64,000 nucleotides of DNA from positions 248,001 to 312,000 of the forward strand of contig NZ_JAHBAY010000007.1 in NCBI RefSeq assembly GCF_018499875.1, written 5' to 3'. Origin of the DNA: Kineosporia corallincola (GTDB lineage: Bacteria > Actinomycetota > Actinomycetes > Actinomycetales > Kineosporiaceae). The notes under the pieces were generated by a model that was not told the origin of the DNA, did not search any database, and saw nothing but the letters and a program-made list of their open reading frames with translations. The translations under genes and the position numbers were made by a program. Below, piece after piece: positions 1,568-12,652 of this stretch; the first letter of the stretch is position 1; each line of letters starts with the position of its first letter.

Positions 1568-2905
1568 ATGGACAGGCAGCAGGAGTTCATTCTCCGCTCG
1601 ATCGAGGAGCGGGACATCCGGTTCATCCGGCTCTGGTTCACCGACATCCTCGGGTCACTGAAGAGCGTCTCGATCGCCCCGGCCGAGCTGGAGGGTGCGT
1701 TCGCCGAGGGCATCGGGTTCGACGGCTCCGCGATCGAGGGCCTCGCCCGGGTGCACGAGGCGGACATGCTCGCCAAGCCCGACCCCTCCACGTTCCAGGT
1801 GCTGCCCTGGCGTGGTGAGTCGCAGGGCACCGCCCGGATGTTCTGCGACATCCTCACGCCCGACCGCGAGCCGGCCCTGATGGATCCGCGCAACGTGCTC
1901 AAGCGCGCCCTGAACAAGGCCGCCGAGCACGGGCTGAGCTTCTACACCCACCCCGAGATCGAGTTCTACCTGTTCAAGGAGCCGTCCACCTGGGGCCAGG
2001 AGCCCGAGCCGGTGGACCAGGCGGGTTACTTCGACCACGTGCCGCGCGGCACCACGCACGACTTCCGGCGGGCCGCGATCGGCGTGCTGGAGTCGATGGG
2101 CATCTCGGTGGAGTTCAGCCACCACGAGGCCGGGCCGGGCCAGAACGAGATCGACCTGCGCTACGCCGACGCGCTGACCATGGCCGACAACATCATGACC
2201 TTCCGCACGGTGATCAAGGAGGTCGCGCTCGAGCAGGGGCTGTTCGCCTCGTTCATGCCCAAGCCGCTGAACGAGCACCCGGGTTCGGGCATGCACACCC
2301 ACTTCTCGCTGTTCGAGGGTGACCAGAACGCCTTCCACGAGGCCGGCGCCGAGTACCAGCTGAGCAAGGTCGGGCGGCAGTTCATCGCGGGCATGCTGAA
2401 GCACGCCGCCGAGATCACCGCCGTCACCAACCAGTGGGTGAACTCGTACAAGCGCATCTGGGGCGGCGCCGAGGCCCCGGCCTACATCTGCTGGGGCCAC
2501 AACAACCGCTCGGCCCTGATCCGGGTGCCGATGTACAAGCCGGGCAAGGGCCAGTCCACCCGCGTGGAGTACCGCGGCCTGGACAGCGCCACCAACCCCT
2601 ACCTGGCCTACGCACTGATGCTGAACGCCGGTATGAAGGGCATCGAGCAGGGCCTGGAGCTGCCGGAGGGCGCCGACGACAACGTCTGGTCGCTGACCGA
2701 GGCCGAGCGCCGGGCGATGGGCATCACCCGGCTGCCGGAGAACCTCGACCAGGCGATCTCGATCATGGAAGACTCCGAGCTGGTGGCGGAGACCCTGGGC
2801 GAGGGCGTGTTCGACTTCTTCCTGCGCAACAAGCGTGCGGAGTGGGCCGACTACCGCTCGCAGGTCACGCCGTTCGAGCTGAAGCGGTACCTGCCGCTGC
2901 TGTAG
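1568..2905 (+). CDS. glnA2: Glutamine synthetase type I, GlnA2-like
   Basis: ATP-dependent ligase of the GS-I fold that would join ammonia to glutamate, or to a related amine substrate. It is 445 residues, matching the short GlnA2 class of actinobacteria. Visible motifs are the N-terminal beta-grasp (FTDILGSLKSVSI), GFDGSAIEG, the metal-binding PEIEFYLF, the EAGPGQNEIDL segment, the FMPKPLNEHPGSGMH strand with catalytic His, the NNRSALIRVP strand and the VEYRGLDSATNPYLAYAL segment. At the place of the adenylylation tyrosine of GlnA1 it has DDNVWSLTEAE, so it is probably not controlled by GlnE. Some actinobacterial GlnA-like enzymes are gamma-glutamylpolyamine synthetases, so the substrate is uncertain. 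Confidence 0.93.
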   Translation: MDRQQEFILRSIEERDIRFIRLWFTDILGSLKSVSIAPAELEGAFAEGIGFDGSAIEGLARVHEADMLAKPDPSTFQVLPWRGESQGTARMFCDILTPDREPALMDPRNVLKRALNKAAEHGLSFYTHPEIEFYLFKEPSTWGQEPEPVDQAGYFDHVPRGTTHDFRRAAIGVLESMGISVEFSHHEAGPGQNEIDLRYADALTMADNIMTFRTVIKEVALEQGLFASFMPKPLNEHPGSGMHTHFSLFEGDQNAFHEAGAEYQLSKVGRQFIAGMLKHAAEITAVTNQWVNSYKRIWGGAEAPAYICWGHNNRSALIRVPMYKPGKGQSTRVEYRGLDSATNPYLAYALMLNAGMKGIEQGLELPEGADDNVWSLTEAERRAMGITRLPENLDQAISIMEDSELVAETLGEGVFDFFLRNKRAEWADYRSQVTPFELKRYLPLL

Positions 2906-2926
2906 GTGCCGGACAAGGCCGGTCGA

Positions 2927-2958
2927 AAGGGGCGGTGCGGGGTTCCGTACCGCCCCTT
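2927..2958 (+). terminator. Hairpin after glnA2
   Basis: A perfect 10-bp inverted repeat (AAGGGGCGGT at 2927-2936 with ACCGCCCCTT at 2949-2958) starts 22 bases after the glnA2 stop. There is no T-run, which is common for actinobacterial terminators. Confidence 0.6.
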
Positions 2959-3092
2959 GGTGCGTCCGCTCCCTGGCGAACGGCTGATTCGTCGCCTTCC
3001 GGCCTCAGGACGAGTGGGGTTCCGAGCGACTGATCCAGCAGGAGGCTGTCCTCACCGGGGACGCCGAGGCCGGTTCAGGAGTTCGCAGCCGC

Positions 3093-3683
3093 ATGTCAGA
3101 CACCGCCGCCGGTCGCCGGATGCCGGTGCGGATCGTGGTGGCCGGTGCCGTGGCGGGCGCGCTGCTGTGCACCGGAACGCTCTGGCGCACCACCGGCGCG
3201 ATGTTCGGCGACACCACCACGAACAGCAGCAGCTGGAGTGCGGGCAGCGTGACGGTCACCGACGACGACGCGGGCAGCGCGCTGTTCGACAGCACCCGGG
3301 ACGGCGTGCTCACCGGTGGCCAGACGCTGACCCGGTGCATCCTGGTCACCTACACCGGTTCGGTCACCTCCGGCACCCGCATCCGGCTGTACGCCGACGC
3401 GAGCGGGACGCTGGCCGGTCAGCTCGACCTGACGGTCGACGAGGGCACCGGCGGATCGTCCGGCGACTGCTCGGGTTTCAGCCCCACCACGCCCGGCCTG
3501 TACACCGGCACGCTCGCCTCCTTCGCCACCGCGGCCTCGTCGTTCGCCTCCGGCGTGGGCAGCTGGGAGCCCTCGGCCACCCCGGACAGCCGCACCTACC
3601 GGTTCACCGCGTCGGTGCGGAACACGGTGGCGGCCCGCAACGCGGTCGCGTCGGGCACCTTCACCTGGGAAGCCCGGGTCTGA
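3093..3683 (+). CDS. SipW-dependent, TasA/camelysin-like secreted protein
   Basis: A 196-residue exported protein. The N-terminus has a hydrophobic segment (about residues 12-33) followed by MFGDTTTNSSSWSAGSV, the arrangement typical of substrates of SipW-type signal peptidases such as TasA, camelysin and related fibre or surface proteins. The remainder is Ser/Thr/Gly-rich beta structure with two cysteines (about residues 86 and 127) that could form a disulfide, and it lacks a wall-anchor motif. The ATG at 3093 is the first plausible start. The next gene, two bases downstream, encodes a SipW-type signal peptidase, so this protein is its probable substrate. The family assignment comes from N-terminal layout and context, and the function of the mature protein is unknown. 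Confidence 0.7.
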   Translation: MSDTAAGRRMPVRIVVAGAVAGALLCTGTLWRTTGAMFGDTTTNSSSWSAGSVTVTDDDAGSALFDSTRDGVLTGGQTLTRCILVTYTGSVTSGTRIRLYADASGTLAGQLDLTVDEGTGGSSGDCSGFSPTTPGLYTGTLASFATAASSFASGVGSWEPSATPDSRTYRFTASVRNTVAARNAVASGTFTWEARV

Positions 3684-3685
3684 GG

Positions 3686-5038
3686 ATGGCGCGCGGGTGC
3701 TGGGCGGCGCTGCTGGGCGTCGTCCTCGGGTTCGTCCTGATCGTCGGGGCGGTGCTGACCGTACCCCGGCTGCTGGGCTGGCAGCCGGTCACCGTGGTCT
3801 CCGGCTCGATGGCCCCGGCCGTCCGGGCCGGCGACGTGCTGCTCGTGGCCCCTCTCGGGGCCCGGCCGGCCCGGGTCGGCGAGGTGGTCACCTACCGCCG
3901 GCCGGGCACCGGGGCGCTGGTCACCCACCGGATCACCACGGTGGACGACGAGGGGCGCGCCTACCGCACCCGCGGTGACGCCAACCTGGTGGACGACGCC
4001 GGCCCGGTACCGGCCGGCGCGGTGCTGGGACGTGCCCGGGTGCGCGTGCCGCTGGCCGGTCTGCCGGTGCTGCACCCGGCCGCCACCGGAATCGTGCTGC
4101 TGGGCGGCACGGTGCTGGTGGCGGGATGCGTGCTACGGCGGAGGCGGCTGCGCCGGGACCGGCTGGGGCAGAATCGGTTGCGGCAGGATCGGTTACGGCG
4201 GGACCGGCTGCGGCGGCACCGGCCCGTGATGCTGGTCGCCGGCCTGTGCCTGGGCTGCCTCGGGCTCACGGCCGTGCTGCCGGCCAGCGCCGCGCAGTTC
4301 ACCTCGGCCACCGACACCGGGTTCAGCTTCGGCACCGGCGACTGGCAGGCGTTTCCCCAGCAGGTGCGCGACCTGGGCCCGGTCTCGTACTGGCCGCTCG
4401 ACGAGACCTCGGGCACGACGGTGGCCGACGCCGTCGGCGGCAACCCGATGACCTATGTGGGCAGCCCCACCGTCGGCCTGACCGGGGCCCTGTACGGCAG
4501 CCCCGGGCACGCCCTCGGCCTGAACACCAACGCCCAGGGAGCCCAGACGGCAGCCTCCCCGGCCACACTGAACCTGCGGGGCCCGATCAGCGTGATGGCC
4601 TGGGTGAAGATGCCCGCCGGCGGGTCCACCGCCAGCAGCCGGATCGTGGCGAAGTACGCCTACGCCGGGTCGGGCGGCGTCAGCTACATGCTGGCCCTCA
4701 GCGCCGACCAGACCTCCATGCGCCTGCTGTTCGACCTGACCGCGGGCAGCCCGTCGCGGCCGGTGGCCTACGCGCCGATCCCGTCCGACCACGCCTGGCA
4801 CCTGTACGTGGGCACCTGGGACGGCTCGACCGTGCGGGTCTACCGCGACGGCGTGCTGGGCGGCTCGACCCCGGTGACCGGCGCCGGGCAGCTGGTCTCC
4901 ACCACCGCCCGGGTCACCGTCGGCGCCCCGGGCTTCAGCGAGTCGGCCGTGGGCACGACGGTGGACGAGGCCGCGGTGTGGGACCGGGCGCTGAGCGCGA
5001 CGGAGATCTCGGCCCTCTACCGGGCCGGCACCTCATGA
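3686..5038 (+). CDS. SipW-type signal peptidase I fused to a LamG domain
   Basis: A 450-residue fusion. Residues 1-25 form a first membrane segment. The SGSMAPAVRAGDVLL box carries the catalytic serine, and ALVTHRITTVDD has His where bacterial signal peptidases have Lys, so this is the ER/SipW type. A second hydrophobic segment lies at about 130-150. Then comes a basic linker of tandem Arg-Leu-Arg pentads (about 152-180). Residues 182-205 form a third hydrophobic segment ending ASAAQFTSATDTGFSFGTG, which itself looks like a SipW-substrate signal peptide. Residues 232-450 are a LamG/concanavalin-like jelly roll starting at VSYWPLDETSGTT. There is no stop codon between the parts. An internal GTG/ATG at 4226/4229 could make the LamG part separately. 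It follows the TasA-like gene by two bases. Confidence 0.8.
   Translation: MARGCWAALLGVVLGFVLIVGAVLTVPRLLGWQPVTVVSGSMAPAVRAGDVLLVAPLGARPARVGEVVTYRRPGTGALVTHRITTVDDEGRAYRTRGDANLVDDAGPVPAGAVLGRARVRVPLAGLPVLHPAATGIVLLGGTVLVAGCVLRRRRLRRDRLGQNRLRQDRLRRDRLRRHRPVMLVAGLCLGCLGLTAVLPASAAQFTSATDTGFSFGTGDWQAFPQQVRDLGPVSYWPLDETSGTTVADAVGGNPMTYVGSPTVGLTGALYGSPGHALGLNTNAQGAQTAASPATLNLRGPISVMAWVKMPAGGSTASSRIVAKYAYAGSGGVSYMLALSADQTSMRLLFDLTAGSPSRPVAYAPIPSDHAWHLYVGTWDGSTVRVYRDGVLGGSTPVTGAGQLVSTTARVTVGAPGFSESAVGTTVDEAAVWDRALSATEISALYRAGTS
4147..4221 (+). repeat. 15-base tandem repeat coding the peptidase-LamG linker
   Basis: About five imperfect copies of a 15-base unit (core CGGCTGCGGCGGGAC and variants) encode Arg-Leu-Arg/Gly-Arg/Gln-Asp/Asn pentads in the linker of the signal-peptidase/LamG fusion. 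The repeat ends at the internal GTG/ATG. Confidence 0.7.
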
Positions 5039-5051
5039 GGTCAGTGTGACG

Positions 5052-6530
5052 TCAGCGCCGTCGGACGCGTGGAACGCCGCCCTTACGGCCGATGTCGAAG
5101 GCGATGCGATAGACGTCAGGCAGGTCGATCCTCCCGTCTGAACGAAAGCTCATCACCCCGAGGTTTCTCAGCTCGTCGATCAGACCGTCGGGTGTGCGTG
5201 CCCTGGGCCCTGTCCGGATGTCGTCGTCGGAGTCCTCGTCGTCGGGCGAAACGGGCGCGACCCGTTCCCAGAACGATTCCCCGGCCCAGCGTTCCACCAG
5301 GATCTCGCGTTCCATCGGCACCTGGAGGCCGGCCAGCTCCTCCACCGCGACGCCTACCCAGGGGATGTCCTCGCGCATCTCGCCGACCCTGATCTGCGAC
5401 GCGTGCTGGACCCCCGACCGGATCGCGTCGTAGTGCAGGGCATACGAGTGGCCGCCGTACCGACTGGCGGTGTTCTCCGCGGCGTTCGACAGAGCGCTGA
5501 GAAAACTCCTTGGACTCACCTGCCGGGACCCGTCCATCAGATGATTCGGCAGCCAGGAGTAGGTGTGGCCCTTGCGGTGGTCCAGGCCCATGTAAGGCCC
5601 GGCGATCCCGACGAACAACTCGCGCTGGCTGGTCGCGTCGCTCGCCACCCGGGTGGGCATGACATAGCGTTCCTCGGCGTCTTCCTCGGCGGGCTGAAGA
5701 AGCCAGGTCCCAGGCGCGGAGTGCTGCCGGAACCGGGCGGAGAGCTCGGGATCGCCGTTGCCGAGATGGTGGAAGAAGAGACCGTAGAGGTTGGTCTCCG
5801 ACCAGGTGAGCTCGGCGGCGTTGGCGATGAGCTTGGAGGCGTCGGCGAAGGTGAACGACGACGCGGTGAGCATGTCGGGGCGGATGAAGATCTTGGCCCG
5901 CAGCCGCCGGTACCCGGTCCGCAGGTCGAGGGCGAGTCGTAGGATGCCTTCGATCAGATGGTTGGCCTGTTCACGGTCTTCGTGAAGCCGGTCCAGGGCG
6001 TCGAAAAGGATCAGTGACTGCCGGTTCTCGGCAGCCAGCCGCTGGTCGGCGGCGGCCAGCTCCCGTTCCAGGTCTTCCGGTGAATCCTCGACCCACCGGA
6101 CCTTCTCCGCCCAGGTGGCCGCCGAGACCACAGGTGCGCTGCGCAGTCCTTGCAGCAGCACCGCGGTCCAGATCGCCGTCGACTGCCGGCCGTCGGCGAG
6201 AAGGGCTCGCAGTACGGACGGCCCGGGGTACGAGTCCGGCTGGCGTTCTGATCCGTACCCGCTCAGCGGCTGGATGCGCCGCAGCGATTCGAGCCGGTAC
6301 TCGACCGCAGCCAGGCTGCGCAGGTTTTCCCGGTGCAAGGCCTTGAACCACACCGTTTTTCCGGAACCCCGGGCGCCCTGCACCAGAGTGACGTCCGGGT
6401 CGAGGGCGAGACGGTGGTTGTCGGGCGTGAAGAGACCGGCGAAGTCGGGATCCTTGGTATCGGCGTCGACCGTGGTGGGGACCGACGACTGGATCAGGCT
6501 GCGGTACTCGGACGAGGTCAGTTCAGTCAT
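5052..6530 (-). CDS. P-loop ATPase, third gene of the HEPN/KGGVGR operon
   Basis: A 492-residue soluble protein with an N-terminal NTPase core. Walker A is GARGSGKT (residues 52-59) and Walker B is LILFDALDR (about 173-181), which recalls STAND/AAA-type ATPases. The C-terminal half (about 250-492) is unfamiliar: it contains PTRVASDATSQRELFVGIAG, a possible arginine-finger region, and a winged-helix-like tail rich in Asp and Arg. The start at 6530 is chosen because its ATG overlaps the stop codon of the preceding gene by 8 bases, indicating translational coupling. The ATPase family is not certain. Position in the operon suggests it acts with the KGGVGR ATPase, possibly in defence or stress signalling. 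That is inference. Confidence 0.8.
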   Translation of the reverse strand: MTELTSSEYRSLIQSSVPTTVDADTKDPDFAGLFTPDNHRLALDPDVTLVQGARGSGKTVWFKALHRENLRSLAAVEYRLESLRRIQPLSGYGSERQPDSYPGPSVLRALLADGRQSTAIWTAVLLQGLRSAPVVSAATWAEKVRWVEDSPEDLERELAAADQRLAAENRQSLILFDALDRLHEDREQANHLIEGILRLALDLRTGYRRLRAKIFIRPDMLTASSFTFADASKLIANAAELTWSETNLYGLFFHHLGNGDPELSARFRQHSAPGTWLLQPAEEDAEERYVMPTRVASDATSQRELFVGIAGPYMGLDHRKGHTYSWLPNHLMDGSRQVSPRSFLSALSNAAENTASRYGGHSYALHYDAIRSGVQHASQIRVGEMREDIPWVGVAVEELAGLQVPMEREILVERWAGESFWERVAPVSPDDEDSDDDIRTGPRARTPDGLIDELRNLGVMSFRSDGRIDLPDVYRIAFDIGRKGGVPRVRRR

Positions 6531-7836
6531 TCGTGTCTCCCACGGCGAGTTCGGCGGCCCAGTCGAGGAATTCACGGAACGCTGCCCTGATCAGTTCTGA
6601 TTCCTGCCAGTTCGCCCGGGCTGAGGGATCCAGCCCGACCATCTCCCCGACGAAGAGAATCGGGACGGCGTAGTGCGGCGCCGTGACATCGTCGGGAGCG
6701 GGGTTGAAAGCTTCGGCGTCCCAGGTCGTGGCGTCGTCGTACAGGGATGTGGCGAAACAGTCCTGTGCGCGGTCGCGGAACCGGGACAGATACGTGCTCG
6801 CCGATCCCGGCGGCGTCAGGGCGGCGACGGTGCGGAGACGCTCCCGGATGACGGTCGCCCGGTCGGCGTCGGCCCACTGTTGGAAGAGGTCTCCGTACCC
6901 GGTCCATGTCTGCTCGTTGTCAGTGGCGAACAGAAAGGTCAGATCGCTCAGCCGGCTGATCGCGGCAGCGGCGACGTCGTGGATTCCCGCACGGCTGTCC
7001 AGCAGCACGACGTCCGGCCGGCGGCTGAGGGATCCCACCTGGGCCTCGCAGAACGATATCGCCGCGTCCAGCCTGTCTGCGAAGGTCGCCCGGCCGCCGG
7101 CCGCCGTGGTGAGGTCGGCATAGATACGGTTCAGTTTCGGCAGGTAAGAATAGCCGGCCCGGGGGCGGCCTCGCGCCGGGGCGACCCACACCTCGCCGTT
7201 GCCCTTGACCTGAATCTTGTTGCTGCGGGCCACGACATCCAGTTCGGTCGCGTGGTCTCCGAGTGCGGCCTCGATCAGGAAGTCCACCAGACCGTAATTG
7301 GCTGCCTCTGTCTCGGTCTGGAGTAGCGGCCCGATCCCGGGAGACTCCAGGTCGAGGTCGACGACCAGGACACAGCGACCGGTCTCCGCCAGGCGCTCGG
7401 CGAGCAGGAAGGTGGCCGACGTGCGCCCGACACCACCCTTGAAGCCGTACAGCGTGACCCGTCGGGAAGCGGGGTCGGCCTTCACCCTGAGCCAGTCGGC
7501 GCCCACGATTCCACGCTCCAGCACAGCGGTGAACCCGGCTTCCCCGGTGCGCTCGTCGAGGAGCACGAGATCGCGGCTCCGGAAGATGTCGTCCGGATCG
7601 ATCAGAGCGCCGGCCACGGCGACGGTCATGGGTGAGGCGTACTCGCCGAGGGCTTCACGCAGTCGGGCTCGCCACCCGTCCAGTTGCTCGGGCGTCGTCG
7701 GCCTGGCCCTGTCGTCAATGACGACGGTGATTCTTCCGGCGAGGTCGCGTAGTGCCACCACATCTGATCCGGAGGCACTGAGTTCCGGGAGCCGGGTGCG
7801 GACGTACGCCCAGGCGTCGTCGAATCTCATGGTCAT
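6523..7836 (-). CDS. KGGVGR-motif ParA/MinD-like ATPase
   Basis: A 437-residue protein. Residues 1-125 form an alpha/beta domain of unknown role. From about 126 it is a MinD/ParA-like P-loop domain with the deviant Walker A FKGGVGRTSA (residues 132-141), in which the usual GK of KGGxGK is GR. A switch-like segment VVDLDLESPGIG and a Walker B DVVLLDSRAGIHD follow. Pairing of a KGGVGR ATPase with other genes is known in several bacterial islands, but I cannot name an established system with this composition. The ATG at 7836 overlaps the stop of the upstream gene as ATGA, and the longer frame back to 8049 is rejected for that reason. Base composition looks less GC-rich than in glnA2 or glnE. Confidence 0.85.
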   Translation of the reverse strand: MTMRFDDAWAYVRTRLPELSASGSDVVALRDLAGRITVVIDDRARPTTPEQLDGWRARLREALGEYASPMTVAVAGALIDPDDIFRSRDLVLLDERTGEAGFTAVLERGIVGADWLRVKADPASRRVTLYGFKGGVGRTSATFLLAERLAETGRCVLVVDLDLESPGIGPLLQTETEAANYGLVDFLIEAALGDHATELDVVARSNKIQVKGNGEVWVAPARGRPRAGYSYLPKLNRIYADLTTAAGGRATFADRLDAAISFCEAQVGSLSRRPDVVLLDSRAGIHDVAAAAISRLSDLTFLFATDNEQTWTGYGDLFQQWADADRATVIRERLRTVAALTPPGSASTYLSRFRDRAQDCFATSLYDDATTWDAEAFNPAPDDVTAPHYAVPILFVGEMVGLDPSARANWQESELIRAAFREFLDWAAELAVGDTND

Positions 7837-8303
7837 GACAGGCCACCGTCGAGCTGGGCCTGCTGGTGGAGCCGGGCGACGGTTGTCGCGGCCTCGAGGT
7901 GGCTGCGGCAGATCTCGGGAGTGACGGCTGTGCCGTTCGCGTAGCGGTCCCAGACCTGCCAGCTGCCGCGGAACGGATTGTCCGAACTGATCAGTGTCAG
8001 GAACTGCGCGCCGGAGCGGCCCTGGGCGTGCAGGGCGAGGTGGTCCCACACGTCAGGCAGGTGCCCGTACTCGACGACACGACCCTCCGGTGTGACGGTC
8101 TCGGGTTTGATCCTGCCCATCCGGCCACCGAGGAAGTCGAGCAGTATGGCTTTCAGAAGGCATTCCGCCGCCAGCCCAGCCAGATGATCGGCATTGGCGT
8201 GACGTGCGGAGGCTTCCAAGTGATTCCCGTCGTCGAGGTGTCGCATACCGGCGCCTGCGAAGTCGGAGGACGATGTTGTAGACGTCGTGGCCACACTGCA
8301 CAC
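7833..8303 (-). CDS. HEPN-like protein, first gene of the operon
   Basis: A 156-residue, mostly helical protein. The segment ARHANADHLAGLAAECLLKA (about residues 33-52) is the characteristic first pair of helices of HEPN-domain proteins, which bind nucleotides or act as RNases, often as toxins. The C-terminal helices contain FRGSWQVWDRYANGTAV. I do not see the R-x4-6-H motif of ribonuclease-active HEPN proteins, so activity is uncertain. The start is ambiguous: GTG at 8303 or 8294, or ATG at 8246. The longer form is reported because DFAGAGMRHLDDGNHL aligns with the usual first helix. It is translationally coupled to the KGGVGR ATPase. The HEPN call is by pattern only. Confidence 0.7.
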   Translation of the reverse strand: MCSVATTSTTSSSDFAGAGMRHLDDGNHLEASARHANADHLAGLAAECLLKAILLDFLGGRMGRIKPETVTPEGRVVEYGHLPDVWDHLALHAQGRSGAQFLTLISSDNPFRGSWQVWDRYANGTAVTPEICRSHLEAATTVARLHQQAQLDGGLS

Positions 8304-8400
8304 TATCGAGTTGTCATGGTGGACGGGCGATCAATGGCGAGAGCGTGGATCGCCCGGGGCGAACAGAGGCGCCGGACAAGCAATCAGAGGGCGGTGGACG

Positions 8401-9165
8401 GTGCGGAATCAAGCATACGGTGGGGCGGCTGAGGTTCGGCCGGTCCTGATCGTCGAGCACGAGAGTGCCTGCCCGCCCGCGCTGTTCGGGGCCGGTCTCT
8501 CGTCGTCCACCGTTGACGCCGAGACGGTCAGGCCGTACCGCGGCGATCCGGTGCCCGGTGACCTGGACCGGTACGACGGGCTGGTGGTGCTGGGCGGGGC
8601 GATGGCGGCCTGGGACGACGAGGTGGCGCCCTGGCTGCCCGCCGTGCGCGCGCTGCTGGCCGGGGCGGTGGCGCGGAACGTGCCCACGCTGGGCATCTGC
8701 CTGGGGGCCCAGCTGCTGGCCCTGGCCTGCGGCGGACGGGTGGAACGCGGCGCGGCCGGTCTGGAGGCCGGGGTGAACCCGGTGACCGTTCTGCCGGCCG
8801 CCGATGCCGACCCGTTCTTCGGCCCGGTCGGCGACCGGCTGGGGTCCGGGCCGTGGCAGGTGCGGCACTTCCACCACGACGCGGTGACCGCCCTGCCGCC
8901 CGACGCCGAGCTGCTGGTGACCGGAAAGGTCTATCCGCACCAGGGTTTCCGGGTGGGAGAGAACGCCTGGGCGGTGCAGTACCACCCGGAGGTCAGCGGC
9001 GACGGGTTCGCGGTGTGGGCGGCACGGGCCGAGGCGTCCGGCGCGGTGCCGTCCGCGGCCGCCCTGCTGGCCCCGGTGCGGGCGGCCGAGCAGACCCAGG
9101 CCCGGGTGGCGCAGGCGCACGCGGCGGCGTTCGTGAGCGCGCTGCAACCGGCTTTCCCCGGCTGA
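8401..9165 (+). CDS. Class I glutamine amidotransferase (GMP-synthase-like)
   Basis: A 254-residue cytoplasmic GATase1 protein that would release ammonia from glutamine or hydrolyse a gamma-glutamyl bond. The nucleophile is Cys100 in GICLGAQLLAL, and His195/Glu197 in YHPEV complete the triad. LVVLGGAMAAW forms the oxyanion strand. No synthetase domain is attached, as in the stand-alone family often found next to glnA2 and glnE in actinomycetes. The GTG at 8401 has GAGGGCGG about 8 bases upstream, and the upstream open frame to 8287 overlaps the divergent HEPN promoter region, so it is not used. Proximity to glutamine synthetase and GlnE suggests nitrogen metabolism. The true substrate is unknown. 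Confidence 0.88.
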   Translation: MRNQAYGGAAEVRPVLIVEHESACPPALFGAGLSSSTVDAETVRPYRGDPVPGDLDRYDGLVVLGGAMAAWDDEVAPWLPAVRALLAGAVARNVPTLGICLGAQLLALACGGRVERGAAGLEAGVNPVTVLPAADADPFFGPVGDRLGSGPWQVRHFHHDAVTALPPDAELLVTGKVYPHQGFRVGENAWAVQYHPEVSGDGFAVWAARAEASGAVPSAAALLAPVRAAEQTQARVAQAHAAAFVSALQPAFPG

Positions 9166-9246
9166 GAGGCCCGCTGGAGTCTGCCGGTCCCACCTCGCGC
9201 CGTCGTCGGGTGACCGGCCCGGCACGGCAGCGGGAGGGCTGGTTCG

Positions 9247-9285
9247 TTTTTGACACCACCATGGCCGGCAGGGTGGTGTCAAAAA
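9247..9285. repeat. AT-flanked inverted repeat upstream of glnE
   Basis: A perfect 14-bp inverted repeat, TTTTTGACACCACC (9247-9260) and GGTGGTGTCAAAAA (9272-9285), with an 11-base loop. The A/T runs are within the arms, so there is no free U-tail in either direction. It may be a protein-binding palindrome or an unusual terminator for the amidotransferase gene, which ends 80 bases before it. Confidence 0.6.
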
Positions 9286-9400
9286 AGATCGATGCCCCCC
9301 CTGCGCCGCGCCCCGTGATGCCTCGCGAGGCTGCGCTCCGACGCCTGCCCCGCCCCCGCCGGAGGGACCGGCTCCCTCCCCGCGCGGTGGGCGACCGCAT

Positions 9401-9406
9401 TACGGT
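9401..9406 (+). promoter_or_regulatory. Probable -10 of a leaderless glnE transcript
   Basis: TACGGT lies six bases before the GTG start at 9413, placing a transcription start on or next to the initiation codon. No ribosome binding site is visible. Confidence 0.4.
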
Positions 9407-9412
9407 GGTCGG

Positions 9413-12400
9413 GTGACGACTGCGCGTCAGGTAAGTTTCGCCGCCCGGCTGGCCCGGTTCGGGTTCGCCGACCCGACCGCCGCCGAGCGGGTGCTCGGCA
9501 CCCCCGCGATGACCGAGTTGCTGGCCGCCGAGCCACCGGCCGAGCCGGACGGGTTCACCGGCGAGATACCGCCCCCCGGCGAGAAACTCCTGGCCGCTCT
9601 GGCCGAGTGCCCCGATCCGGATCTGGCCCTGGCCGCCCTCGGCCGGATGGTCGAGTCGCTGGCCCTCACCGATCGCGTACCCGGCGGGCTGGGCGGTCTC
9701 ACCCCGGAGGTGCTGGAGCGGCTCGCCGCCGGCGACGGCCCGGTGGCGCAGCTGTCGCACGCCCTGGCCCGCGACGAGCTGACCGCGCGCCGTCTGTTCG
9801 CCGTGCTCGGCGGGTCCGGGGCGCTCGGCGACCACCTGGTGCGCCATCCCTGGCAGTGGCCGGTGATCGACGGCGAGCTGGGCGGCGACGACCTGCCCGC
9901 GGTCCGTCTCGGCGAGGTGCCCGACCACACCGCCGACCATCACGGGCATGCCCGGGAATATCTCGAAGGCGTTCCGCCGCAGCCCTTCTCGTCTTTCACC
10001 GGCGACGAGCTGCGGGCCGAGCTGCTGCGTGCGGTGGGCGCCGACCCGGACGCCGCGGTGCCGGTCGGCGAGCTGCCGCAGGAACAGGCCACCGACGCGC
10101 TGCGGGTGGCCTACCGCCGTCGCCTGCTCGGGCTGGCCGCGCGTGACCTGGCCGCCGACAACCCGCTGGCGATCGTGCCCACCGTCGCCGCGATCCTCGC
10201 CGACCTGGCCGCCGCCGCGCTGGAGGCCGCGCTCGCGGTGGCCCGCGGTGTGCTGCCCGGCCACGGCGCGAACTGCCGGATCGCGGTGATCGGCATGGGC
10301 AAGTGCGGCGGGCGCGAGCTGAACTACGTCAGCGACGTCGACGTGATCTACGTGGTGGAGGCCCCCGAGGGCGCCGACGAGCAGAAGGCGATCAGCGAAG
10401 GCACGCGGCTGGCGAGCACTCTCGGCCTGGTCTGCTCGAAAGTCACGCCGGAGGGCACACTCTGGCCGGTCGACGCCAACCTCCGGCCGGAGGGCCGGCA
10501 GGGCCCGCTGGTGCGCACCCTGGCCAGTCACCTGGCCTACTACGAGCGCTGGGCGCAGACCTGGGAGTTCCAGGCGCTGCTGAAGGCCCGGCTGGTGGCC
10601 GGCGACGCCGAGCTGGGCGCGCGGTACCTGGCCGGCATCGAGCCGCTGGTCTGGCAGGCCGCCGAGCGCGACAACTTCGTGCCCGACGTGCAGGCGATGC
10701 GCCGCCGGGTGGAGGAGCAGCTGAAGGGCCCCGACGCCGACCGGCAGCTCAAGCTCGGCGCGGGTGGCCTGCGCGACGTGGAGTTCTCGGTGCAGCTGCT
10801 GCAACTGGTGCACGGCCGGATCGACACCCGGTTGAGGACGGCGAACACCCTGCTCGGCCTGGAAGCCCTGAGTACCTTCGGCTATGTCGGCCGGGCCGAC
10901 GCCGCGGAGCTCGACCGGGCCTACCGCATGCTCCGCTCGCTGGAGCACCGCATCCAGCTGTTCCGGCTCCAGCGCACCCACGTGGTGCCCACCGGCGAGG
11001 CCGACCTACGGCGCCTGGGGCGGGAGTTCGGCTTCCGCGCCGACCCGGGCGGGCAGCTCACCACGCTCTGGCGCAAGCAGGCCCGGGAGGTCCGGCGGCT
11101 GCACGAGAAGCTGTTCTACCGGCCGCTTCTCGCGGCCGCGGCCGAGCTCAGCAGCGACGAGGCCCGGCTCACCCCGGAGGCCGCGCGGGTGCGGCTGGCC
11201 GCGCTCGGCTACCGCGACCCGGCCGGGGCGATGCGCCACCTGAGCGCCCTCACCACCGGGGTGTCCCGGCGGGCGGCGATCCAGCGGCAGCTGCTGCCGG
11301 TGATGCTCGGCTGGTTCGCCGACGGCGCCGACCCGGACGCCGGGCTGCTCGACTTCCGCCGCCTGTCCGACGCCCTCGGCTCCACCCACTGGTACCTGAA
11401 GATGCTGCGCGACTCCGGCGCCGCGGCCGAGCGGCTGGCCCACGTGCTGTCGTCCAGCCAGCTGGTGGCCGAGCTGCTCCAGCGCAGCCCGGAGGCGGTG
11501 GCGCTGCTGGAGACCGACGAGGTGCTCCAGCCCCAGCCGCTGGAGTCGATGATCGCCTCCGTGCGCAAGGGCGCGGCCCGGCACGAGGGCGATCCGGTGG
11601 GCGGGGCGATGGCTGCGCGGGCGGTGCGGCGGCGCGAGACCATCCGCACCGGGGTGGCCGACGTCGCCGGGCTCACCGACATCGACACCGTGGGCCACGC
11701 CCTCAGCGACTGCGCGGTGGCGGCGCTCGACGGCGCGCTGGTGGCGGCCGCCGACTCGGTGCGGGCCCGGCGGGGCGACCTGCCGGTGCGGATGGCGGTG
11801 ATCGCTATGGGCCGGCTGGGCGGGCGGGAGAACAGCTACTCCAGCGACGCCGACGTGATGTTCGTGGCCGACCCGCTGCCCGGCACCGCGCCGCACGAGG
11901 CCCAGGCGGCCGCCGTCGACCTGTGCTCGGAACTGCGCCGCCTGCTCTCGGCCACCGGCCCGGAGCCGGCCCTGGCGGTCGACGCCAACCTGCGCCCGGA
12001 GGGCCGCAACGGCCCGCTCGTGCGCTCGCTGGCCTCCTACCGCGACTACTACGCGCGCTGGTCGGTGGCCTGGGAGGCGCAGGCCCTGACCCGGGCCCGG
12101 CCGATCGCCGGAGACGTCGCGCTGGGCCAGGAGTTCGTCGAGCTGATCGACCCGTTGCGCTGGCGTCCGGGTGGGCTCACCGACGCCGCGCTGATGGAGA
12201 TCCGCCGGATCAAGGCCCGGGTGGAGTCGGAGCGGCTGCCCCGTGGCGCCGACCCGCACCGTCACCTCAAGCTCGGCCGCGGGGCGCTGGCCGACGTGGA
12301 GTGGACGGTGCAGCTGGTCCAGCTCCAGCACGCCCACGAGGTGCCCGGGCTGCGTGTCACCGGCACGATGGCGGCCCTCGACGCCGCGGTCGCCGCCGGT

Positions 12401-12652
12401 CTGGTCGAACCGGTGGACGGCGAGGTGCTGGCCGAGGCCTGGCGTCTGGCCGCCCGGTTCCGCAACGCGATCACGCTGTGGAAGGGCAACGCGAGCGACG
12501 TGCCTCCGGCCAACTACACCGCGCTCGACGGCGTGGCCCGGATCATGGGCTACCCCCCGGCGTCGGCGGGCCGGCTCGACGACGACTACCAGCGGGTGAC
12601 CCGGAGGGCCCGCACCGTGGTGGAGCGGCTGTTCTACGGTTGGGACGTGTGA
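9413..12652 (+). CDS. glnE: Glutamine synthetase adenylyltransferase/deadenylase
   Basis: Bifunctional regulator of GlnA1: one half attaches AMP to a tyrosine of glutamine synthetase, the other removes it. It is 1079 residues. Both nucleotidyltransferase domains are visible: GMGKCGGRELNYVSDVD at about residue 295 (deadenylylating half) and AMGRLGGRENSYSSDAD at about 799 (adenylylating half), each followed by the VDANLRPEGRNGPLVRSLA type of segment. The joining helices contain the LGAGGLRDVEFSVQLLQL repeat. The Tyr target is present in GlnA1 and absent from GlnA2. It starts with GTG at 9413, probably without a leader, and its stop overlaps the next gene. Confidence 0.97.
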   Translation: MTTARQVSFAARLARFGFADPTAAERVLGTPAMTELLAAEPPAEPDGFTGEIPPPGEKLLAALAECPDPDLALAALGRMVESLALTDRVPGGLGGLTPEVLERLAAGDGPVAQLSHALARDELTARRLFAVLGGSGALGDHLVRHPWQWPVIDGELGGDDLPAVRLGEVPDHTADHHGHAREYLEGVPPQPFSSFTGDELRAELLRAVGADPDAAVPVGELPQEQATDALRVAYRRRLLGLAARDLAADNPLAIVPTVAAILADLAAAALEAALAVARGVLPGHGANCRIAVIGMGKCGGRELNYVSDVDVIYVVEAPEGADEQKAISEGTRLASTLGLVCSKVTPEGTLWPVDANLRPEGRQGPLVRTLASHLAYYERWAQTWEFQALLKARLVAGDAELGARYLAGIEPLVWQAAERDNFVPDVQAMRRRVEEQLKGPDADRQLKLGAGGLRDVEFSVQLLQLVHGRIDTRLRTANTLLGLEALSTFGYVGRADAAELDRAYRMLRSLEHRIQLFRLQRTHVVPTGEADLRRLGREFGFRADPGGQLTTLWRKQAREVRRLHEKLFYRPLLAAAAELSSDEARLTPEAARVRLAALGYRDPAGAMRHLSALTTGVSRRAAIQRQLLPVMLGWFADGADPDAGLLDFRRLSDALGSTHWYLKMLRDSGAAAERLAHVLSSSQLVAELLQRSPEAVALLETDEVLQPQPLESMIASVRKGAARHEGDPVGGAMAARAVRRRETIRTGVADVAGLTDIDTVGHALSDCAVAALDGALVAAADSVRARRGDLPVRMAVIAMGRLGGRENSYSSDADVMFVADPLPGTAPHEAQAAAVDLCSELRRLLSATGPEPALAVDANLRPEGRNGPLVRSLASYRDYYARWSVAWEAQALTRARPIAGDVALGQEFVELIDPLRWRPGGLTDAALMEIRRIKARVESERLPRGADPHRHLKLGRGALADVEWTVQLVQLQHAHEVPGLRVTGTMAALDAAVAAGLVEPVDGEVLAEAWRLAARFRNAITLWKGNASDVPPANYTALDGVARIMGYPPASAGRLDDDYQRVTRRARTVVERLFYGWDV

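What the first reader, a model, noticed from the sequence alone, without database searches (positions are those of the whole stretch)
5052..8303. Three-gene HEPN / KGGVGR ATPase / P-loop ATPase operon
Seen: three overlapping minus-strand genes (ATGA overlap, then an 8-base overlap), each with a distinct fold: a HEPN-like helical protein, a ParA/MinD-like ATPase with FKGGVGRTSA, and a second P-loop ATPase with GARGSGKT and LILFDALDR. Known: HEPN proteins, often toxin RNases or nucleotide binders, are frequent in bacterial conflict systems, and two NTPases with an effector is a common defence layout. I know no named system with this exact trio. The position between two housekeeping genes that are normally close (glnA2 and glnE) and a visibly lower GC suggest acquisition. 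Inference: a defence or stress module in which the ATPases control the HEPN protein.
Basis: partly seen in the sequence, partly recalled or inferred. Interest (0 to 1): 0.8.

Follow-up and report, generated by a model that had tools for sequence, protein, structure and literature searches.

The report
Mobile HEPN–two-ATPase defence candidate
A recently acquired set of three overlapping genes encodes a small HEPN-fold protein and two ATPases that travel together across several bacterial phyla, often beside other anti-phage systems, so they are probably one anti-phage machine; it is already listed as an untested candidate, and how it works is unknown.

Summary
Three minus-strand genes A (HEPN-like), B (KGGVGR ParA/MinD-like) and C (P-loop) overlap by 4 and 8 bases. 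An AlphaFold model of A resembles HEPN proteins; that of C resembles ORC/Cdc6-STAND ATPases, BrxC among them. "No named system" needs correcting: all three match PADLOC's candidate PDC-M28A/B/C. New here: (1) A, B and C all match in 78 of 80 related genome loci (the best of 548) and evolve together; (2) 31 of 80 have BREX genes in the held flanks, in both orientations within one slot, in several separate lineages; (3) 13 viral contigs and 12 fetched plasmid loci carry the genes (C cut off by the record end in one); (4) a same-genus genome has a clean empty site; (5) the same genome holds a sister version with B and C as one protein, again behind a HEPN-like gene. The HEPN RNase motif RX4-6H is absent from the window protein and not conserved (11 of 75 relatives have it, the nearest one included), while E47, C48, K51, H81, W115, R120 and Y121 are 60 of 60. 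Best reading: a mobile, defence-associated, NTP-gated module, probably causing infection-triggered growth arrest. Defence is inferred from context; no activity is shown.

The parts
7833..8303 (-). Gene A, 156 aa, HEPN-fold protein (PDC-M28A)
6523..7836 (-). Gene B, 437 aa, KGGVGR variant ParA/MinD-like ATPase with an unassigned N-terminal domain of about 110 aa (PDC-M28B)
   Evidence: NF047398 193.4 bits, cut-off 90; 5.2e-230.
5052..6530 (-). Gene C, 492 aa, ORC/Cdc6-STAND-like P-loop ATPase (PDC-M28C)
   Evidence: 6.4e-168; AF2 pLDDT 93.3, pTM 0.92; NF047389 67.3 bits, under its cut-off of 75.
7420..7440 (-). B P-loop KGGVGRT (Arg where the usual P-loop has a second Lys; the usual motif is recalled)
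   Evidence: K133 63 of 64 and R138 64 of 64 (that set came partly from a scan for this motif); invariant in 12 of 12 of the alignment (window plus 11 plasmid proteins found by tblastn).
6354..6377 (-). C Walker A GARGSGKT
   Evidence: K58 60 of 60.
5988..6014 (-). C Walker B region LILFDALDR
   Evidence: D177 60 of 60; residue 180 D or E in 59 of 60.
7941..7946 (-). A residues R120-Y121, just before the last helix; no His follows at 4-6 residues' distance in the window protein
   Evidence: RY 60 of 60; His at the RX4-6H distance in 8 of 60 aligned rows and 11 of 75 relatives, not in the window; helix boundaries.
8061..8063 (-). A residue H81, invariant histidine before helix 84-93
   Evidence: 60 of 60.
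5039..8445 (.). Segment absent from same-genus genome G005 (empty site; flanks there 26 bases apart)
1568..2905 (+). Flank: glnA, glutamine synthetase
   Evidence: PF00120 1.5e-125.
9413..12652 (+). Flank: glnE adenylyltransferase
   Evidence: PF03710 3.4e-93.

Best explanation
A self-contained, horizontally moving, three-protein anti-invader module, the PADLOC candidate PDC-M28. Proposed working: C, an ATPase of the ORC/Cdc6-STAND kind with intact Walker motifs, is the NTP-driven sensor/switch that responds to a sign of infection. B, a ParA/MinD-like protein with an arginine in the P-loop, acts as a nucleotide-held coupling dimer bound to C. A, a HEPN protein, is the output that stops growth, most likely by acting on or binding RNA through a site made of E47, K51, H81, R120 and Y121 rather than the usual RX4-6H. 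Shown: gene set, predicted folds, motifs, cohesion, mobility, repeated placing beside or inside BREX loci, a B-C fusion in a sister family. Inferred: physical complex, the cue, the direction of signalling, growth arrest, the site in A.
For: PADLOC models match all three. A, B and C all matched in 78 of 80 loci; median gene gaps -4 and -4 in 77 loci; distance matrices agree in 69 loci, r = 0.75 (A-B), 0.93 (B-C), 0.80 (A-C), shuffled maxima 0.10 or less. BREX genes in the held flanks of 31 of 80 loci (27, 4 more; many flanks are cut by contig ends); none in 12 control loci; 3 of 12 annotated plasmid regions lie inside BREX-2. The BREX label needs 9 changes on the tree, at least 7 forced by starred branches; gains and losses cannot be told apart. 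Some other neighbours hit DrmD, MkoA/C, DarG, HmaA and restriction models, one or two of 75 ORFs each, base rate not measured. 13 viral contigs hold the trio, with integrase, terminase or repressor families near some. B and C are one protein in a sister family in 9 of 296 genomes, own included, with a HEPN-like ORF just upstream in 9 of 9. The host has no PglZ, so if it works here it works without BREX.
Against: No experiment. RX4-6H is not conserved (64 of 75 relatives lack it), so a standard HEPN RNase output is doubtful. C homologues occur alone on 6 plasmids, so C can exist without A and B. 49 of 80 loci show no BREX gene in the held flank, nor do 12 viral trio loci; the window itself has no recognised defence neighbour (the SspA/DndA- and Csa3-type hits were not followed up). 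No match among 50,697 phage records at E 1e-10. BREX clustering is partly shared descent (12 opposite-strand loci form one clade).
Confidence: 0.45

Rival explanations
1. Same defence module, but A is not an effector: it is a nucleotide- or substrate-binding adaptor (as HEPN domains fused to nucleotidyltransferases are thought to be), and the ATPases B/C themselves act on the invader, for example by blocking DNA partition or replication.
For: RX4-6H not conserved and absent in the window; among the nearest folds are small stand-alone HEPN proteins and sacsin HEPN; B is ParA/MinD-like and C resembles ORC, TnsC and BrxC, families that act on DNA (recalled); HEPN as regulatory domain in fused proteins from PMC3710099 section 14.
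Against: Seven invariant residues in A (60 of 60) look like an active or ligand site; 11 of 75 relatives, the window's nearest one (L018) included, do carry RX4-6H; PMC3710099 reports that HEPN proteins without the motif can still be toxic.
Confidence: 0.25
2. A toxin-antitoxin pair (HEPN toxin, ParA-like antitoxin) with C as third part, kept by addiction.
For: A HEPN (MAE_18760 family) plus ParA/Soj dyad was postulated as a toxin-antitoxin system (PMC3710099 section 14); carriage on plasmids.
Against: The HEPN gene comes first, the reverse of the antitoxin-first order described for MNT-HEPN pairs; C is as tightly coupled to B as A is; B-C fusion in the sister family; recurrence beside BREX.
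Confidence: 0.1
3. A dedicated BREX accessory that regulates or extends BREX.
For: 31 of 80 loci with BREX genes in the held flanks; C resembles BrxC in fold.
Against: The window genome has no PglZ; 49 of 80 loci have no BREX gene in the held flank; both orientations occur in one slot.
Confidence: 0.08
4. Not defence: a mobile regulator of cell division, nitrogen metabolism or stress, near glnA/glnE by chance.
For: No experiment shows defence; the window site is among nitrogen genes.
Against: Trio absent from this slot in the three same-genus genomes examined there, of five; defence, plasmid and prophage-like contexts elsewhere.
Confidence: 0.12

Closest known systems
PADLOC putative defence candidate PDC-M28 (A, B, C)
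   Same: All three proteins match its models over most of their length.
   Different: A candidate only: no paper naming PDC-M28 was found. PDCs are described as unvalidated and as found by 'guilt by embedding' in PMC12988326 (12 of 17 passages shown). The cited work on embedded defences, Payne et al. 2024 bioRxiv, was seen only as a reference-list entry; that it describes PDC-M28 is recalled, not seen.
HEPN superfamily (TT1696, AF_0298, TM0613, sacsin HEPN)
   Different: No RX4-6H in the window protein; no Pfam hit at E up to 1; Foldseek best E only 0.15.
HEPN (MAE_18760) + ParA/Soj dyad, Anantharaman et al. 2013
   Same: HEPN gene beside a ParA-type ATPase, proposed for conflict.
   Different: A third gene, C, is present; the RNase motif is not conserved in A; the MAE_18760 family was not compared with A.
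BREX (BrxC ATPase)
   Different: No PglZ in this genome; C is 492 aa, while BrxC is described as 1200 to 1300 residues in a passage of PMC12839542.
Actinobacterial AP-ATPase with inactive MinD/ParA-like domain (Kaur et al. 2020)
   Same: STAND-type ATPase joined to a MinD/ParA-like domain in conflict systems (passages).
   Different: No HEPN partner in the passages seen; B and C are separate genes in the window.

Membership tests
PDC-M28 (PADLOC) | Matches to the A, B and C models | tested here: met
   4.2e-36, 5.2e-230, 6.4e-168
PDC-M28 (PADLOC) | Three genes adjacent, order A-B-C | tested here: met
   window; all three in 78 of 80 relatives. PADLOC's own order rule was not seen.
PDC-M28 (PADLOC) | Anti-phage activity | not testable with these tools
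   no experiment possible; no paper naming it found
HEPN superfamily | HEPN helical fold | tested here: met
HEPN endoRNases | RX4-6H at the start of the last helix | tested here: not met
   absent in the window; present in 8 of 60 aligned rows and 11 of 75 relatives, L018 included
KGGVGR-motif ATPase, NF047398 | score over curated cut-off 90 | tested here: met
   193.4 bits
Sll1717-family ATPase, NF047389 | score over curated cut-off 75 | tested here: not met
   67.3 bits
ORC/Cdc6-STAND AAA+ ATPases | fold plus Walker A and B | tested here: met
   subgroup within this class not settled
BREX | PglZ in the genome | tested here: not met
   0 matches for PF08665 in own genome, 97% complete
HEPN-ParA toxin-antitoxin dyad (MAE_18760) | HEPN of the MAE_18760 family | not tested
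   no MAE_18760 profile was compared with A; that the paper's table lists it as motif-bearing was seen in a passage

The most novel reading that the evidence does not exclude
A new mechanistic class of defence: an ORC/STAND-type switch and an arginine-P-loop ParA/MinD-like partner, in a sister family one fused protein, gate a HEPN protein that acts through a conserved site other than the usual RNase motif; when placed inside BREX loci it is a second line of defence that fires when BREX fails or is inhibited.
Probability: 0.25. Interest if true: 0.8.

Novelty: new member of a known kind. Interest (0 to 1): 0.5.

Why it matters
A module seen in at least ten phyla among the loci fetched (several only in metagenome bins), carried by plasmids and prophage-like contigs and recurring beside BREX, is likely to matter for phage resistance, yet no published mechanism was found in the held library. 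The fused sister family and the invariant residues of A give testable predictions, and they bear on what HEPN proteins without the RNase motif do, a question raised in PMC3710099.

Tried and rejected
HEPN by sequence: Pfam, NCBIfam and a PDB sequence profile gave no HEPN hit for A; only the fold comparison did. RNA families and promoter- or terminator-like sites near the operon: none found (for 4500-9500, for 8200-8560). PADLOC hits elsewhere in the window (37 selected ORFs): SspA/DndA- and Csa3-type models only, one protein each, not followed up. The other same-genome hit L003 is a ParA-like protein (KGGVGR model 38.7 bits, under its cut-off). The fused sister protein has no match on plasmids at E 1e-15. 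Phage records: no match. Papers: 'PDC-M28', 'KGGVGR', 'Sll1717' in 0 papers; HEPN/ParA/antiphage search: no paper on this trio by title among the 20 listed of 56; BREX/HEPN/MinD search: 2 papers. PMC12839542 was seen as outline, 12 of 31 passages, section 35 part 1 of 2, and further passages: HEPN effectors beside BREX are mentioned; 'ParA-like', 'Soj' and 'PDC' occur 0 times in its main text; supplements were not read.

Own errors mended: my first motif count (5 of 75) took an earlier RY in some rows; the recount at the conserved site gives 11 of 75. For this I lowered the adaptor rival from 0.27 to 0.25 and spread the rest over two others. My adjacency script gave 69 of 80, because it used stop-to-stop ORF ends; of its 11 misses eight have A and C in place, L067 has both with B interrupted, L069 lacks A and L080 lacks C. 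The regex that found the sister family's HEPN-like ORFs contains E-C-x-x-K, so those three residues are shared there by construction; only H and RY are independent, and RY was matched by eye. Left out of the tree: plasmid L017 and record H3 (near copies of L007), L005, L003 and the solo-C loci. Alignments A4, A5 and A6 hold the window plus 59 of 75, 59 of 74 and 63 of 78 usable proteins. I had no model coordinates, so clustering of A's conserved residues in space was not tested.
Full report
What is there. Three minus-strand genes, A (7833-8303), B (6523-7836) and C (5052-6530), overlap by 4 and 8 bases. B matches the KGGVGR ATPase domain NF047398 at 193.4 bits, cut-off 90. C reaches 67.3 bits against NF047389 (Sll1717 family), below its cut-off of 75. 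A has no Pfam or NCBIfam hit. All three match PADLOC models PDC-M28A, B and C at 4e-36, 5e-230 and 6e-168. So the trio was already catalogued as a putative defence candidate; the name is in no paper of the held library.

HEPN motif. At the conserved RY site the window protein has no RX4-6H. Of the 60 aligned rows 8 have it, and of all 75 relatives 11, L018, which carries the nearest B (53% identity), among them. It is therefore sporadic, not conserved. E47, C48, K51, H81, W115, R120 and Y121 are 60 of 60. A pattern search without regard to position finds R-x4-6-H somewhere in 68 of 75, which I do not count. PMC3710099 section 14 (whole section read) notes HEPN proteins without the motif that are still toxic, HEPN proteins with alternative histidines, and a HEPN/ParA dyad proposed as toxin-antitoxin.

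Cohesion. A matches in 79 of 80 (not L069), C in 79 of 80 (not L080), all three in 78, on one strand. In L067 B is interrupted and C lies 4.2 kb on. In 77 loci the median gap is -4 at both junctions; 51 and 47 of 77 are exactly -4. Distances among 69 loci correlate at 0.75, 0.93 and 0.80 (shuffles at most 0.10). In phylum samples A, B and C were each found in two genomes only, the same two: B 2 of 396, A 2 of 296, C 2 of 296.

Setting. BREX-2 proteins matched in the held flanks (up to 10 kb) of 27 of 80 loci. A second PglX query added L053, L054, L059 and L066, and PglX, PglZ, BrxC and BrxL models matched among the 163 flank ORFs scanned, of 174 selected from the 53 loci without BREX-2. In 11 loci the trio lies between PglX and PglW on the opposite strand; in L034, L041, L043, L045 and L047 it lies between them on the same strand. 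By annotation plasmid loci L006, L008 and L010 are inside BREX-2, 3 of 12 regions fetched of 13 records. The same BREX search found nothing in 12 control loci, in 12 viral trio loci or in 8 short loci of the fused family. On a 92-row tree of B the BREX label changes 9 times, at least 7 forced by starred branches; the counts do not tell gain from loss, and the opposite-strand group of 12 is one clade. Rows include Actinomycetota, Pseudomonadota, Myxococcota, Acidobacteriota, Planctomycetota, Bacteroidota, Nitrospirota, Deinococcota, Chlorobiota and Verrucomicrobiota, many of them metagenome bins.

Mobility. 97 other relatives, 5 of the same genus and 7 of the same family among them, have no B match at E 1e-30. 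In G005 the end of the LamG gene (window 5038) and the amidotransferase (window 8446) lie 26 bases apart; in G002 and G003 the LamG gene is missing from the slot too. G001 and G004 were not examined at this slot. Plasmids: 13 records. Viral contigs: 13 with the full trio, two of them 98.7% alike over 4.7 kb, with integrase, terminase and repressor families among 89 flank ORFs of 12 contigs.

Sister family. The same genome has a 907-aa protein (L098 4322-7045; G000:C10:144321-147041) with a KGGVGR part (163.6 bits) and a C-like part in one chain. It is in 9 of 296 class genomes, own included, each with a HEPN-like ORF on the same strand that ends 420-453 bases before the KGGVGR motif (9 of 9). 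Profile comparison: B part 99.5%, C part 98.8% over 366 columns, HEPN-like protein 83.9%; the last is only suggestive. PADLOC's models see the B part clearly (2e-15) and the other two barely. Gene fusion argues that B and C work together.

Against. C occurs without A or B on 6 plasmids. In one locus (L063) C is fused to a calcineurin-type phosphoesterase and a NACHT domain, so C can be part of other proteins. The host of the window has no PglZ. Nothing here shows phage resistance, a complex, or an enzyme activity.

Verdict. The added value is the evidence that it is one evolving unit, recurring beside BREX, carried by plasmids and prophage-like contigs, with a fused sister family, and with a HEPN protein in which the RNase motif is sporadic while another residue set is invariant.

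Noticed in passing
L098:4322-7045 (G000:C10:144321-147041): Sister system in the same genome: KGGVGR ATPase and C-like ATPase in one 907-aa protein, HEPN-like ORF just upstream; family in 9 of 296 class genomes, own included.
   Followed up: yes
L063:10567-15978: C fused in one ORF to a calcineurin-type phosphoesterase (98 bits to the antiphage DS9_1 model, under its cut-off) and a NACHT domain.
   Followed up: partly
L141-L145, L147: C homologues without A or B within 6 kb on Streptomyces and Kitasatospora plasmids.
   Followed up: partly
window 2906-8445: Variable slot between glnA and the amidotransferase gene: empty in G002 and G003, LamG gene only in G005, LamG gene plus trio in the window.
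   Followed up: partly
L118-L129, L137: Viral (prophage-like) contigs carrying the trio; five further viral contigs have B and C matches in one ORF (L130, L132-L134, L138).
   Followed up: partly
L018, L019, L023, L043, L058, L067, L081, L085, L086, L087, L092: A proteins that do carry RX4-6H at the conserved RY site, in scattered lineages.
   Followed up: no
L062 and L064: Nearly identical B in a Flavobacteriaceae bin and a Thiomargarita genome: recent transfer or mis-binning.
   Followed up: no
L067:9989-16642: B interrupted, its two pieces about 3.7 kb apart, in Saccharomonospora.
   Followed up: no
L146:4182-7512: A cyanobacterial (Calothrix) plasmid carries a distant trio with its A annotated as HEPN, near a type III restriction subunit.
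   Followed up: no
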